Assembly (NCBI RefSeq): GCF_011761475.1
Contig: NZ_JAASRS010000001.1
Span: 1,550,001-1,614,000 of the forward strand
Origin: Saccharococcus thermophilus
Lineage (GTDB): Bacteria > Bacillota > Bacilli > Bacillales > Anoxybacillaceae
Direction: 5' to 3'
DNA: 64,000 nt
The position numbers and the translations under genes are program-made. Below the pieces are notes generated by a model. It had not been told where the DNA came from and ran no database searches. It saw only the letters and a program-made list of their open reading frames with translations. Below, one piece after another: positions 923 through 40,470 of this stretch (its first letter is position 1; each line of letters starts with the position of its first letter).

Positions 923-1003
923 GGTACCGTCAAGAATTTTGTGTAATGTAAATGGGGTAGGGTTTCTCTGAAATGGATTTGAATTGATAGGGGACTGATT
1001 TTC

Positions 1004-1041
1004 TCCACACAGGAGACTGAATATTCAGTCTCTTGTGTGGA
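1004..1041. repeat. Long near-perfect palindrome inside IS256 copy A
   Basis: A 38-bp inverted repeat beginning TCCACACAGG and ending mirror-wise, with one G:T-type mismatch in this copy. It lies between the transposase stop codon and the nearer IS end. No long T run follows, so it is not a classical intrinsic terminator. The perfect version is at 6950-6987 in copy B. Confidence 0.85.
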
Positions 1042-1081
1042 AAGGGAGAATCCCCTTATTTTGTTTATTTACAATATTTGG

Positions 1082-2251
1082 TTAACAATAACGTTCTTCA
1101 AACATTCGTTGAAGGGCTTCCTGCGCTTCGGCAAATCCTCTTAACTTTCGCCCTGCCCATTTCTCATTAAAATCTTGGATGGTCAAATACACGACTTTTT
1201 CCGCGGCTTCTAAACTGCTCAAACTGTTCATCGGCTTTAGACGTTTCCGAATCTCTTTGATCGTTCGTTCGATGACATTCGTCGTGTAAATCACACTTCG
1301 AATACTGCTTGGATAATCCATAAATGTAAGGAGGACATCCAACTCATTGGCCCAAGATTGAACTTCTCTTGGATATTTGCTGGACCATTTCGACTCAAAC
1401 TGTTGAAACATTTGTAACGCCATCTCCTTATTCGGCGCGCGATAAATCAGCTTGAGATCCTCGGCCACTTCGAATTGGTCTTTTTTCCGAACACGGCTGA
1501 GGGTGTTGCGGACTTTGTGCACGACACAGCGCTGCACATCGGCTTTCGGATACACCGCCTTAAAGGCTTCCTCCAGCCCCGGAAGGCCATCGAAGACGCC
1601 AAGAAGCACTTCCTTGACGCCTCTTTGGTAGAGGTGTTGAAGAATTTCCTGCCATCCATAGGCGCTTTCTTGTCCTCCCACGAAGAAATCCAGAATTTCT
1701 CGATACCCTTCTTCATTCACTCCTAACACCACATAAATGACTTCTTTCTCTACCGTATCGCGGCGAAGTTTCACGTACAAGCCGTCCAAATATAAGACAG
1801 AATAACGTTTGGATAGTGGACGATGGTGCCATTTCTCGATGTCTTCTTTCACGACATCGGTAATACGGCTGATCGTCGCTGGAGAATAAGCATTTCCTAG
1901 AATTCGTTCGATAAACTTGCCAATTTCCCGTGTACTCATGCCACTTTGATACATCCTAATGATGGCTTCCTCCAGCCAGCCGGTGTGGCGTTGATAAGGG
2001 GCAAACAACTGTGTTTGAAATTCCCCGTTTCGGTCTCTTGGAACCAAAAGACCCTCAATCCGGCCATATTGCGTATCTAGATTTCGCTGATAGTAGCCGT
2101 TTCTCATATTCGGCGTTCCAGCCTGTTCGATTTCGAGGAAATGTTTGATTTCTTCCCGCATAATCAGCTCTAATTTTTCCTTCACAAACTGACGAATGAC
2201 ACTTTCCAGTTGATTTGCCCAGTCGACATTCGGTATACTTCTTTTAGACAT
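1082..2251 (-). CDS. IS256-family transposase (copy A)
   Basis: A 389-residue DDE transposase that catalyses cut-and-paste or copy-out movement of its own IS. The mutator-type catalytic core is visible: first Asp in SVLYLDGLYVK, second Asp in GVFDGLPG, and Glu in TTNVIERTIKEIRKR. The start is ATG 2251 (MSKRSIPNVDW), preceded by GAAAGGAG about 10 nt upstream. An open frame runs 25 codons further upstream but has no ribosome site and is not used in copy B. Full length with no internal stops, so it is probably active. It differs from copy B at roughly 18 residues plus one inserted Arg near the N-terminus. Confidence 0.93.
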   Translation of the reverse strand: MSKRSIPNVDWANQLESVIRQFVKEKLELIMREEIKHFLEIEQAGTPNMRNGYYQRNLDTQYGRIEGLLVPRDRNGEFQTQLFAPYQRHTGWLEEAIIRMYQSGMSTREIGKFIERILGNAYSPATISRITDVVKEDIEKWHHRPLSKRYSVLYLDGLYVKLRRDTVEKEVIYVVLGVNEEGYREILDFFVGGQESAYGWQEILQHLYQRGVKEVLLGVFDGLPGLEEAFKAVYPKADVQRCVVHKVRNTLSRVRKKDQFEVAEDLKLIYRAPNKEMALQMFQQFESKWSSKYPREVQSWANELDVLLTFMDYPSSIRSVIYTTNVIERTIKEIRKRLKPMNSLSSLEAAEKVVYLTIQDFNEKWAGRKLRGFAEAQEALQRMFEERYC

Positions 2252-2827: not shown

Positions 2828-3018
2828 CCTTTTTCTTCACTCCTTAGACATTATTCATCATCGCAGCGGTAACATAACGGTTAACAAGATGATTGTCGGC
2901 GGTTGCTTCTTCTCAACCAATGCCACTTATGAAAAAACTTGTATTGTTAGGATTTACCATTAATAAGCTTATCCAAACTGGCAGGATTGTTTCTTGATTT
3001 TCTTTTGAACAAAAAACG

Positions 3019-3063
3019 AGACTAACCCCTTCTAGAATGCGAAACATTTGGGAGGGGTTAGTC
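3019..3063 (-). terminator. Intrinsic terminator / end hairpin of tnpA
   Basis: A perfect 11-bp inverted repeat, GACTAACCCCT at 3020-3030 and AGGGGTTAGTC at 3053-3063, overlaps the tnpA stop codon. Read on the minus strand it is followed by TCGTTTTTTG, so it can act as a terminator for tnpA. It may also be the left-end structure of the IS200/IS605 element. Confidence 0.7.
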
Positions 3064-3387
3064 GCGAATTATCTATTTTCTTGGTTTTAGATGTATTTTT
3101 TATCACTTCTAAAGGTACTCCTCCGGTAGAAAAAATCATATAACTATTGCTCGAAAAATAAGGTTTCCAATAATGCTTCGATATTTCTTCTTTATATTCT
3201 TTACGAATATATCGAGAAGATATCGTTTTAAAATTGTTTATTAGCTTCAACAACTGAATTTGAGGAGGTGCGTCGAATAAAATATGTACGTGATCCTTTT
3301 CCCATTCATCTCGATTAACTCATATTGATCTTCCCTCTTTACGACTAAATAAATTCTTTAATACAATATTACCAATAAAACAAACAT
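3032..3387 (-). pseudogene. IS200/IS605 TnpA (Y1 HUH transposase) remnant
   Basis: Minus-strand fragments match TnpA: YELIEMNG, then in another frame EKDHVHILFDAPPQ with the HUH metal-binding motif HVH (about 3284-3292), then LLKLINNFKTISSRYIRKE and YWKPYFSSNSYMIFSTGG. Lesions seen: the N-terminal part is missing or scrambled, one G is lost near 3300 before the HUH motif, and one A is lost at 3096-3101 just before the catalytic Tyr. That loss puts the IKKYI Tyr codon out of frame, and an in-frame TAA follows when the frame is repaired. The 73-codon open frame at 3032-3253 is only the surviving middle of this gene. Confidence 0.82.
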
Positions 3388-3408
3388 TTGGAAAGGAGGG
3401 TTCGTTTG

Positions 3409-4785
3409 ATGGCAAAAGCTCCGAAAGCAGAAAAAATAAAAACCATTCAAAATAAAATCATCTCTCACGGAAAAAAGACATTCGAGAATACGCTTATTAT
3501 CTTTCGAGATGCGTTAACTTTTATTGTAGATGTTGTAGATCGAGAGTTCGATGCTTTGGAGCATCTTTCTACGAAAGAAGCAGTTCCTGCCGTAGAAAGA
3601 TTGATCCATCGGACCAAAACGAACCCTCATCCAAAGTATGATTTTAGTTTAAAGTTTTATAAGTTCCCGTCTTATTTTAGACGTTCAGCAATATCAAAAG
3701 CTTTAGGAATCGTAAAAAGCCATCGTTCTAACCTCAAAAATTGGGAAAAAGAACGTGATCAAGCACTTGCCGAGGGCAAGAGGTTTAAGAAAAAACCTCC
3801 GGCTTTAAGAATCGATCACAAAGCGTTTCCTGTTTTCTATAAAGGGAATATGTTTAAGCGTTTGTCCGAAAACCAGGCACAGATCAAAGTGTATAAAAAC
3901 GGTGACTGGGTTTGGGAGACGATTACGTTTCAAACGAAAAACTTGAAAAACCGGGGAATTACAGGTTGGAAAGAAAGCAACCCTACTATTGTAAAGAAGG
4001 GGAAAAAGTACTTCATTCATTTTTCTTTCTCGAAAAAAATAAAACTAAAAAATACAAAGTTAGAGAATCAAGTGATTGTTGCTGTTGACCTGGGGTTAAC
4101 GAATTCCGCCGTTTGTTCGGTGATGCTTTCGGATGGAACTGTCATCGGCCGGAAATTTATCAACCAGCCGATAGAAAAAGACCGGATGAAAAGCAAAATC
4201 AACAAACTGAAAAAGGCGCAGCAACAATCCGGATGGATTTCTGCGCCAAACTATTGGCGTAGAATCAATGGATTGCAAAAACATATCATTTTTAACACAG
4301 CAAGTGAAATTATTAAATTCGCTGAAAAACATAATGCAGATGTGATTGTATTCGAATACTTAGGCAAAATGAAAATGCCAAAAGACTATTATGGTGCCAA
4401 AAAGTTGCGTCACAAATTGCACCATTGGTGCAGAATCGGGATCCAAAATAAAGTAGAGCAAATGGCTCATTACCGTGGGATGCGTATTCGCCGGGTGAAT
4501 GCGAAAAACACTTCTGCACTTGCGTTTGACGGATCAGGAGAAGTGAAACGCAACAATAAAAAAGACTTGGCCACTTTTCCGAATGGTAAAGTCTATCACG
4601 CAGATCTAAATGCTTCTTACAATATAGGAGCACGATACTTTATACGAGAATTCCTTAAATCCTTTTCTGAAAAGAAAAGGTTGCAATGGGAGGCAAAAGT
4701 TCCTTCCATTGCAGCTAGAACTCGGCAAACGTTGTCTTCATTAATTAGCTTGCGTCAGGCATTAAACATCGAAAGTGTTACATAG
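3409..4785 (+). CDS. tnpB: TnpB, RNA-guided nuclease of IS200/IS605 family
   Basis: A 458-residue TnpB. The start is ATG 3409, with GGAAAGGAGG about 9 nt upstream; the frame is open to 3388 but lacks a site there. The RuvC catalytic triad is complete: Asp227 in VAVDLGLTN, Glu316 in VIVFEYLG and Asp399 in YHADLNASYNIG. The segment between Glu316 and Asp399, where most TnpB proteins carry a four-cysteine zinc finger, has no CxxC pair. TnpB proteins are nucleases guided by an omegaRNA made from the element's right end, and they cut donor sites to keep the element in the genome. The gene is uninterrupted although its tnpA partner is dead. Nuclease activity here is inferred from the family. Confidence 0.88.
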   Translation: MAKAPKAEKIKTIQNKIISHGKKTFENTLIIFRDALTFIVDVVDREFDALEHLSTKEAVPAVERLIHRTKTNPHPKYDFSLKFYKFPSYFRRSAISKALGIVKSHRSNLKNWEKERDQALAEGKRFKKKPPALRIDHKAFPVFYKGNMFKRLSENQAQIKVYKNGDWVWETITFQTKNLKNRGITGWKESNPTIVKKGKKYFIHFSFSKKIKLKNTKLENQVIVAVDLGLTNSAVCSVMLSDGTVIGRKFINQPIEKDRMKSKINKLKKAQQQSGWISAPNYWRRINGLQKHIIFNTASEIIKFAEKHNADVIVFEYLGKMKMPKDYYGAKKLRHKLHHWCRIGIQNKVEQMAHYRGMRIRRVNAKNTSALAFDGSGEVKRNNKKDLATFPNGKVYHADLNASYNIGARYFIREFLKSFSEKKRLQWEAKVPSIAARTRQTLSSLISLRQALNIESVT

Positions 4786-4789
4786 CGTG

Positions 4790-4855
4790 AGCATAGCTGT
4801 ACTTAAGACAACGGATGCTCCGACTAGAATCTTCGATTTAGTCGGGGAGGTTCAC
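4790..4855 (+). ncRNA. Putative omegaRNA 3-prime scaffold at the tnpB right end
   Basis: Just after the tnpB stop codon there is a stem CCGACTA (4820-4826) / TAGTCGG (4839-4845), extendable by two pairs, followed by GGGGAGGTTCAC. In IS605-type elements the omegaRNA covers the tnpB 3-prime end and right end, and the guide is read from flanking DNA past the element. The 5-prime limit is not visible and probably lies inside tnpB. A guide would begin near 4855 (ACTATAACAGTC). Confidence 0.5.
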
Positions 4856-4901
4856 ACTATAACAGTCATACCCCGTATTTTATAATGAGAAAAAATAGGG
4901 G

Positions 4902-5742: not shown

Positions 5743-6909
5743 ATGTCTAAAAGTATACCGAATGTCGACTGGGCAAATCAACTGGAAAGTGTCATTCGTC
5801 AGTTTGTAAAGGAAAAATTAGAACTGATCATGCGGGAAGAAATCAAGAATTTCCTCGAAATAGAACAGGCCGGAACATCAAATATGAGAAACGGCTACTA
5901 TCAACGAAATCTAGATACGCAATATGGCCGGATTGAAGGTCTTTTGGTCCCTAGAGACCGAAACGGAGAATTTCAAACACAGTTGTTTGCCCCTTACCAA
6001 CGGCACACCGGCTGGCTGGAGGAAGCAATCATTAGGATGTACCAAAGTGGCATGAGTACACGGGAAATTGGCAAGTTTATCGAACGAATTCTAGGAAGCA
6101 CCTATTCTCCTGCGACGATCAGCCGTATTACCGATGTCGTGAAGGAAGACATCGAGAAATGGCACACTCGTCCACTGCACAAGCGTTATTCCGTCTTATA
6201 TTTGGATGGTTTATACGTAAAACTTCGTCGCGAAACCGTGGAGAAAGAAGTCATTTATGTGGTGTTAGGGGTGAACGAAGAAGGATATCGCGAAATTCTT
6301 GATTTCTTTGTGGGAGGACAAGAAAGCGCCTATGTATGGCAGGAAATTCTTCAACACCTCTACCAAAGAGGCGCCAAGGAAGTGCTTCTGGGCATATTCG
6401 ATGGACTACCAGGGTTGGAGGAAGCCTTTAAGGCGGTTTATCCGAAAGCCGATGTGCAGCGTTGTGTCGTTCACAAAGTCCGTAACACGCTCCATCGTGT
6501 TCGGAAAAAAGACCAATTTGAAGTGGCCGAGGATCTCAGGCTGATTTATCGCGCGCCGAATAAGGAGATGGCGTTACAGATGTTTCAACAGTTTGAGTCG
6601 AAATGGTCAAGCAAGTATCCGAGAGAAGTTCAATCTTGGGCCAATGAGTTGGATGTCCTCCTTACATTTATGGATTATCCAAGCAGTATTCGAAGTGTGA
6701 TTTACACGACGAATGCCATTGAACGAACGATCAAGGAGATTCGGAAACGTCTAAAGCCGATGAACAGTTTGAATAGTTTAGAAGCCGCTGAAAAAATCGT
6801 ATATTTGACCATTCAAGATTTTAATGAGAAATGGGCAGGGCGAAAGTTGCGAGGATTTGCCGAAGCACAGGAAGCCCTCGAGCGAATGTTTGAAGAACGT
6901 TATCATTAA
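5743..6909 (+). CDS. IS256-family transposase (copy B)
   Basis: A 388-residue transposase, full length. Catalytic residues lie in SVLYLDGLYVK (Asp), GIFDGLPG (Asp) and TTNAIERTIKEIRKR (Glu). The start ATG 5743 follows GAGAAAGGAG about 10 nt upstream. About 18 residues differ from copy A, including SGSTYS for GNAYS-type changes and a C-terminal His for Cys, and this copy lacks the Arg after MSK. Both copies look functional, so their divergence reflects separate lineages or arrivals and not decay. Confidence 0.94.
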   Translation: MSKSIPNVDWANQLESVIRQFVKEKLELIMREEIKNFLEIEQAGTSNMRNGYYQRNLDTQYGRIEGLLVPRDRNGEFQTQLFAPYQRHTGWLEEAIIRMYQSGMSTREIGKFIERILGSTYSPATISRITDVVKEDIEKWHTRPLHKRYSVLYLDGLYVKLRRETVEKEVIYVVLGVNEEGYREILDFFVGGQESAYVWQEILQHLYQRGAKEVLLGIFDGLPGLEEAFKAVYPKADVQRCVVHKVRNTLHRVRKKDQFEVAEDLRLIYRAPNKEMALQMFQQFESKWSSKYPREVQSWANELDVLLTFMDYPSSIRSVIYTTNAIERTIKEIRKRLKPMNSLNSLEAAEKIVYLTIQDFNEKWAGRKLRGFAEAQEALERMFEERYH

Positions 6910-6949
6910 CCAAATACTGTAAATAAACAAAATAGGGGGATTCTCCCTT

Positions 6950-6987
6950 TCCACACAGGAGACTGAATATTCAGTCTCCTGTGTGGA
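6950..6987. repeat. Perfect 38-bp palindrome inside IS256 copy B
   Basis: Begins TCCACACAGGAGACTG, is centred on AATATT, and is perfectly self-complementary over 38 bp. Outside it the arms AATAGGG (left) and CCCTATT (right) extend a weaker pairing. It lies about 40 bp after the transposase stop and about 80 bp before the IS right end, the same place as in copy A. No T run follows it. Confidence 0.9.
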
Positions 6988-7134
6988 GGAAACTAGTTCC
7001 CTATTCATTCCAAATCCATTTCAGAGAAACCCTACCCCCATTATATTACACAAAATTCTTGACGGTACCCAGCGCTGCCCAAAACAAACTATTTGATGAC
7101 AAATATATATAACAATCAAAGGAGGGCGCTGTTT

Positions 7135-40262: not shown

Positions 40263-40470
40263 TTATTCCCTCCTCTTTGTTTGCAGAGGAGATGAATCGA
40301 CCGAACAAAAAAGCCTTCTTTCCCTGCCTTGAGAAAGAAGGACATTCTTGACCGTCATCGGCTGAGTTCATCCCTCTGTCCAAGTCCTTTCTAAGGATCA
40401 AGGCAGATCGCGTTTTTTCTGTTTTCCTTGATGCGCGGTGCAGTTCTTTCACGAAAGATACTGCCCATTT
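40263..40470 (-). promoter_or_regulatory. panB leader with stacked hairpins, terminator and sequestered ribosome site (pan-motif candidate)
   Basis: The minus-strand stretch between birA and panB folds, in order, into GCAGT-A-TCTTTC / GAAAGA-ACTGC with a bulged A (40440-40464); ATCAAGG / CCTTGAT with an inner CAG/CTG (40397-40432); a terminator CCTTCTTTC / GAAAGAAGG with TTTTTT (40307-40341); and CTCCTCT / AGAGGAG (40270-40291), which pairs with the panB ribosome site. Pantothenate operons of Firmicutes are known to carry a pan RNA motif with bulged-A hairpins, and this fits in position. The match to the published consensus is not checked. The terminator could also simply end birA transcription. 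Confidence 0.5.
40307..40341 (-). terminator. Intrinsic terminator in the birA-panB interval
   Basis: Perfect 9-bp stem CCTTCTTTC / GAAAGAAGG followed on the minus strand by CTTTTTTG. It is about 45 nt before the panB start, so it is an attenuator for panB, the terminator of the cca-birA unit, or both. Confidence 0.82.

What the first reader, a model, noticed from the sequence alone, without database searches (positions are those of the whole stretch)
3000..4855. Intact TnpB without zinc-finger cysteines beside a dead TnpA
Seen: the RuvC triad (Asp227, Glu316, Asp399) is complete and the gene is uninterrupted, but no CxxC pair exists between Glu316 and Asp399, where TnpB usually binds zinc. 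tnpA has several lesions. Known: TnpB is an omegaRNA-guided nuclease that maintains IS200/IS605 copies. Inference: this is an immobile tnpB that is either still selected or only recently stranded, and its guide would be read from the DNA after about 4855.
Basis: partly seen in the sequence, partly recalled or inferred. Interest (0 to 1): 0.6.

Follow-up and report, generated by a model that had tools for sequence, protein, structure and literature searches.

The report
Zinc-finger-free TnpB in dead IS605 element
This is an IS605-type insertion sequence whose own transposase is broken but whose RNA-guided DNA-cutting protein (TnpB) and guide RNA look intact; the missing zinc finger is not damage but the normal state of a wide branch of TnpB proteins that I could not find described.

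Summary
tnpB (3409-4785, 458 aa) is open, has the RuvC triad D227/E316/D399 and no CxxC pair; tnpA is truncated and frameshifted. But the two facts are unrelated. About 88 distinct homologues, many beside intact tnpA, also lack the cysteines; instead they share a conserved loop (DG[ST]G..R..F..GK.Y). In my tree they form one clade, apart from ~30%-identical TnpBs that keep both CxxC pairs. An empty site in a relative fixes the ends: TAM TTGAA (3005-3009), element 3010-4855, guide from 4856. An omegaRNA scaffold (~4660-4855) overlaps the end of the gene; 21 of 48 pairs show compensatory changes (0/500 shuffles) and synonymous sites there are nearly frozen. dN/dS against the nearest copy is 0.096, but the tnpA remnant also still looks constrained, so 'recently stranded' fits better than proven selection after immobilisation. 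No intact Y1 transposase was found in the host genome, and no intact guide target. Best reading: an ordinary stranded IS605 element with a probably active, zinc-free TnpB. Activity and zinc content are inferred, not measured. I found no description of this clade in the papers I could search.

The parts
3005..3009 (+). TAM / target motif TTGAA at the left junction
   Evidence: Left end of 45 of 46 related copies with a recognisable left end; empty site in a Domibacillus genome reads ATTGAA|GGAAAC where the filled site is ATTGAA|C...GGTTCAC|GGAAAC
3010..3066 (+). Left end; hairpin 3017-3066, here a nearly perfect palindrome that has lost the GCATT segment found in most relatives
   Evidence: Fold -29.3 kcal/mol; comparison of left ends
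3048..3324 (-). tnpA (Y1 transposase) remnant: N-terminal ~47 codons missing, frameshifts near 3301 and 3095
   Evidence: PF01797 hit; alignment to intact tnpA of L066
3409..4785 (+). tnpB, 458 aa, RuvC D227 (4087-4089), E316 (4354-4356), D399 (4603-4605)
   Evidence: Open frame; NF040570 guided_TnpB 111.3 bits over cut-off 100; triad invariant
4513..4599 (+). Zinc-free loop in place of the TNB zinc ribbon, residues 369-397 (D374, G375, R381, F390, K394, Y396 invariant)
   Evidence: mean pLDDT of the 10-residue blocks here 91-96
4660..4855 (+). Predicted omegaRNA scaffold, overlapping the last ~40 codons of tnpB; 5' limit not known
   Evidence: Fold z -7.95; 21/48 pairs with compensatory change, 0/500 shuffles; synonymous-site conservation peak
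4820..4855 (+). Right-end hairpin and terminal GGTTCAC; last base of the element is 4855
   Evidence: Conserved end, then unrelated flanks in more than 25 copies
4856..4875 (+). Predicted guide (first 20 nt of the right flank); length inferred from known TnpBs
   Evidence: Empty-site junction; no TTGAA+guide match with fewer than 3 mismatches in the own genome or 40 relatives except the element's own junction, which lacks the TAM

Best explanation
A single-copy IS605-type element (3010-4855) that inserted 3' of TTGAA in an intergenic region of a Parageobacillus-type genome. Its Y1 transposase has died, so it no longer moves. Its tnpB mRNA still carries an omegaRNA scaffold over its 3' end; TnpB would bind it, use the right flank from 4856 as guide, and cut TTGAA + flank, i.e. 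an allele from which the element has been lost. That would keep the element in place. TnpB belongs to a clade in which the zinc ribbon of the TNB domain has been replaced by a conserved zinc-free loop. Shown here: anatomy, ends, TAM motif, conserved RNA structure, clade-wide loop, purifying selection between copies. Inferred: nuclease activity, retention function, absence of bound zinc.
For: Triad intact and invariant. Guided-TnpB model over its cut-off. About 88 distinct homologues lack any CxxC pair, found in part by searches that do not use the loop, and form one branch in the tree. Loop predicted well ordered, with Cas12f/TnpB as nearest solved folds. Empty site fixes TAM and both ends. 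Covarying omegaRNA, fold z -7.95, found again in relatives with a covariance model. 4-fold synonymous identity 0.78 and 0.64 over residues 421-458 against about 0.35 in most of the gene. dN/dS 0.096. No intact Y1 gene found in the genome.
Against: No expression, RNA or cleavage data. The C-terminal residues 416-458 carry more amino-acid changes (dN/dS 0.34), though this part is shared with the RNA and has few sites. The exact empty site of this very insertion was not found; the orthologous intergenic region in G035 has diverged. dN/dS covers mostly time before tnpA died.
Confidence: 0.82

Rival explanations
1. The loop is a decayed zinc finger and the protein is a dead TnpB on its way out.
For: tnpA beside it is dead.
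Against: The same loop motif is conserved in about 88 loci across Bacillota and beyond, with invariant D374, G375, R381, F390, K394, Y396, also in multi-copy families (Evansella with intact tnpA, Domibacillus) and under dN/dS near 0.1.
Confidence: 0.05
2. The protein still binds zinc or another metal through other residues of the loop.
For: Not excluded by sequence alone; AlphaFold does not place metals.
Against: No conserved set of Cys/His ligands in the loop: conserved positions are D, G, S/T, R, F, K, Y; the residue after Y396 is H or N, and only one Cys recurs in part of the clade.
Confidence: 0.07
3. An immobile tnpB kept by the host for a new function (domestication).
For: dN/dS 0.096 although neither this copy nor the nearest copy (L003) has a working tnpA in the element; window-lineage amino-acid changes are no more numerous than on the other lineage (7 against 9).
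Against: The tnpA remnant still has low dN (0.094 to L066, against 0.08-0.10 for intact tnpAs; 66 codons), so it died recently and the selection seen is mostly from mobile times. The insertion is not shared by relatives at this place. Guide has no other target in the genome.
Confidence: 0.12
4. A nuclease-dead TnpB-like repressor (TldR type) that uses its guide to regulate a gene.
For: Sits directly upstream of a DUF1648 membrane-protein gene.
Against: RuvC triad complete and invariant in the clade; the only own-genome match of the guide is the element's own junction, which lacks the TAM.
Confidence: 0.03

Closest known systems
TnpB of IS200/IS605 elements (e.g. ISDra2 TnpB, PDB 8EXA/8H1J; NCBIfam NF040570)
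   Same: RuvC D-E-D triad, overall fold, omegaRNA at the right end, guide from the flank, TAM equal to the left target motif
   Different: No CCCC zinc finger in the TNB domain (ISDra2 has C331, C334, C351, C354; PMC10097598); only about 14% identity to the ISDra2 and ISFba1 structures
'Derived' TnpBs of Nety et al. 2023 (PMC10278001)
   Same: RuvC-III motif of the [HN][AC]DL[NS] kind, close to NADxN; omegaRNA with two 5' stem-loops and a 3' stem-loop
   Different: The text I read does not mention loss of the zinc finger; whether a member of this clade was among their 59 orthologues could not be checked
Cas12f
   Same: Best solved-structure match by profile and fold
   Different: Cas12f keeps a CxxC...CxxC finger in the TNB domain (PMC10097598); here the guide RNA is part of a transposon end
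B. subtilis plasmid IS605 element in L066 (NZ_CP032858)
   Same: 75% identical TnpB, same loop, same ends and TAM
   Different: Intact divergent tnpA

Membership tests
RNA-guided TnpB (IS200/IS605) | RuvC D-E-D triad | tested here: met
   D227, E316, D399, invariant in 57
RNA-guided TnpB (IS200/IS605) | Score over curated family cut-off | tested here: met
   NF040570 111.3 bits, cut-off 100; matched at E<=0.001 by all 57 homologues
RNA-guided TnpB (IS200/IS605) | CxxC...CxxC zinc finger in the TNB domain (usual, not universal: 'many TnpBs', PMC10711439) | tested here: not met
   No CxxC pair here or in the clade; PF07282 TNB 24.2 bits, below cut-off 26.3
RNA-guided TnpB (IS200/IS605) | omegaRNA encoded at the right end, guide from the flank | tested here: met
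   Covarying structure up to 4855; transcription not tested
RNA-guided TnpB (IS200/IS605) | TAM equals the target motif left of the element | tested here: inconclusive
   The left target motif is TTGAA, from left ends and an empty site; that TnpB itself reads it is inferred
RNA-guided TnpB (IS200/IS605) | RNA-guided DNA cleavage | not testable with these tools
   Needs bench work
Autonomous IS605 element | Intact Y1 TnpA (HUH and catalytic Tyr in one frame) | tested here: not met
   no intact Y1 found elsewhere in the genome
TldR (nuclease-dead TnpB-like repressor) | Mutated RuvC triad | tested here: not met
   Triad intact
Cas12 effector | Association with a CRISPR array | not tested
   No array was searched for; the transposon ends and omegaRNA make it unlikely

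The most novel reading that the evidence does not exclude
A whole branch of TnpB nucleases (mostly Bacillota, with members in Synergistota, a cyanobacterial plasmid and a gammaproteobacterial plasmid) is zinc-independent: the TNB zinc ribbon was replaced once by a conserved DG[ST]G..R..F..GK.Y loop that does a specific job in target loading or RuvC gating, and its members are active RNA-guided nucleases.
Probability: 0.5. Interest if true: 0.55.

Novelty: new variant of a known kind. Interest (0 to 1): 0.4.

Why it matters
TnpBs are the ancestors of Cas12 and are compact editing tools. A natural, successful clade without the zinc finger would show that the finger is dispensable or replaceable, give a clean comparison for what the TNB domain does, and offer zinc-free TnpBs (this one probably from a thermophile) with a defined target motif (TTGAA) and a mapped guide RNA. 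The locus itself also illustrates tnpB outlasting tnpA, which is common.

Tried and rejected
Searched viral contigs with the single protein: no relatives. Tried to find the exact empty site of this insertion: the orthologous intergenic region in G035 is too diverged and the upstream flank in G036 reads N. Used a joined-flank query from 11 Domibacillus copies instead: one empty site found. Rfam has no matching family for this RNA. Literature searches found no description of a zinc-finger-free TnpB clade; the closest statement is that 'many' TnpBs contain the finger (PMC10711439), and the large TnpB/Cas12 survey that PMC10278001 cites did not turn up in these searches. Rejected: decayed-finger reading, TldR reading, alternative metal ligands. 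PADLOC Cas12 hits reflect the shared RuvC core.

Full report
What is there. tnpB runs 3409-4785 (+), 458 codons, with AAGGAGG at 3393-3399. No CxxC pair lies between E316 and D399. The tnpA remnant is on the - strand at 3048-3324; against the intact tnpA of the closest complete relative (L066, TnpB 75% identical) about 47 N-terminal codons are missing and there are 1-nt deletions near 3301 and 3095, the second just before the codon of the catalytic tyrosine.

Ends, TAM and guide. In related multi-copy elements (Domibacillus, Evansella, Heyndrickxia) unrelated flanks meet a constant left end TTGAAC... and a constant right end ...GAGGTTCAC. Anchored on the left-end hairpin rather than on the motif, 45 of 46 left ends carry TTGAA. 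One Domibacillus copy (L079) has an empty counterpart in another Domibacillus genome (L185): ATTGAA|GGAAAC against ATTGAA|C...GGTTCAC|GGAAAC. So the target motif, and by the rule of the family the TAM, is TTGAA; the window element is 3010-4855 (1846 bp) and the guide starts at 4856. TTGAA followed by the first 17 guide bases occurs nowhere else in the own genome or in 40 relatives with fewer than 3 mismatches; the only own-genome hit is the right junction itself, which has TTCAC instead of the TAM, as expected for a cell that carries the element.

The guide RNA. Window 4655-4855 folds far better than shuffles (z -7.95). An alignment of 22 homologous ends (A2) gives a common structure: two hairpins inside the gene, a long-range helix between tnpB codons (CGTTGTCTT) and the right end (AAGACAACG), a GAAC/GGTTC closing helix next to the guide, and the terminal hairpin. 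21 of 48 pairs have changes on both sides; 0 of 500 shuffles reach any of the five measures, and sliding the partners destroys the signal. Related sequences inflate such counts, but the slid control keeps relatedness. The same stretch of tnpB is nearly frozen at synonymous sites: 4-fold identity 0.78 and 0.64 over residues 421-458 against about 0.35 in most of the gene. A covariance model finds the RNA again in relatives not used to build it. This matches the two 5' stem-loops plus 3' stem-loop reported for Derived TnpBs (PMC10278001).

The missing zinc finger. In searches that do not depend on the loop every full-length homologue at about 40% identity or more that I extracted lacks the cysteines, and so do two at 31-34% (L071, L072); the TnpBs at about 30% found that were read keep both CxxC pairs. 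With the collection scans (which partly use the loop as bait) there are about 88 distinct full-length loci without a CxxC pair. In 57 aligned members D374, G375, R381, F390, K394 and Y396 are invariant. In a tree the zinc-free proteins form one group (97/90 support) apart from all zinc-finger ones; the program's count of two changes comes from one own-genome finger protein (ownZF1) that my CxxC count put in the wrong group. Rooting and long branches limit this. AlphaFold gives mean pLDDT 90.7, with the loop blocks above 90; nearest solved folds are Cas12f and TnpB. No close relative has a solved structure.

Selection and mobility. Against the nearest copy (L003, Parageobacillus caldoxylosilyticus, no tnpA in the element) dS is 0.262, dN 0.025, ratio 0.096; 0.081 without the RNA-overlapping end. 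tnpA-less Domibacillus and Heyndrickxia copies give 0.055-0.154; Evansella copies with intact tnpA give 0.21-0.30 at very low dS. So the proposed comparison 'with versus without tnpA' shows no relaxation in tnpA-less copies, but these may be moved by a tnpA elsewhere in the cell. In the own genome that looks impossible at present: all five Y1 matches are broken or partial. The remnant of tnpA nevertheless has dN no higher than intact copies (0.094 against 0.08-0.10 to L066, 66 codons), so it died recently and the low dN/dS of tnpB cannot be credited to selection after immobilisation.

Left-end detail (inference). Most left ends have GCATT before the CCCC stem; the window and Domibacillus copies L080 and L088 have TAA instead, which turns the hairpin into a nearly perfect palindrome. 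If GCATT is the left guide sequence of the Y1 reaction, this copy would also be a poor substrate for a TnpA supplied in trans.

Verdict. Observation right, coordinates almost exact. Interpretation half right: an immobile, intact tnpB with a readable guide, but the loop is a clade trait unrelated to the dead tnpA. The locus is ordinary; the clade is the more interesting part, and I found no description of it in the papers I could search, which is not proof that none exists.

Noticed in passing
window 978-2240 and 5751-7013: Two IS256-type (Transposase_mut) copies, 92% complementary over 1263 nt in inverted orientation, flank the IS605 element and the DUF1648 gene: composite-transposon-like layout.
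   Followed up: partly
L194 and L195 (own genome, C1 ~2.66 Mb and ~1.42 Mb): Two other IS605-type elements also have an open tnpB frame (392 and 391 aa, with zinc-finger cysteines) beside a broken tnpA.
   Followed up: partly
L210, L212, L214 (own genome); L205, L208, L211 (relatives): Short elements without tnpB that keep the right end, several (L205, L211, L212, L214) with a left end fused straight to it and preceded by TTGAA: MITE-like derivatives carrying part of the guide RNA.
   Followed up: partly
L004 (P. caldoxylosilyticus), 1177-1861 (-): Internally deleted tnpB (residues 116-372 missing, in frame at the join) with a complete guide-RNA scaffold (186 bits), including a compensatory change in the long-range helix; could be an RNA donor for a TnpB in trans.
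   Followed up: partly
window 4129-4188 (tnpB residues 241-260): Second peak of synonymous-site conservation in the clade (4-fold identity 0.64 against ~0.35), unexplained.
   Followed up: no
L078-L110 (Domibacillus indicus): About 15 tnpA-less copies of the element in one genome, each with a different guide: a good natural system for TnpB without cis tnpA.
   Followed up: partly
L076 (JAGGQZ010000014.1): Record titled Chryseobacterium carries a Bacillales-type element close to that of Bacillus sp. ISL-55; probably a mislabelled or contaminated assembly.
   Followed up: no
window 40372-40467 (-): pan motif RNA (RF01749, 53.1 bits).
   Followed up: no
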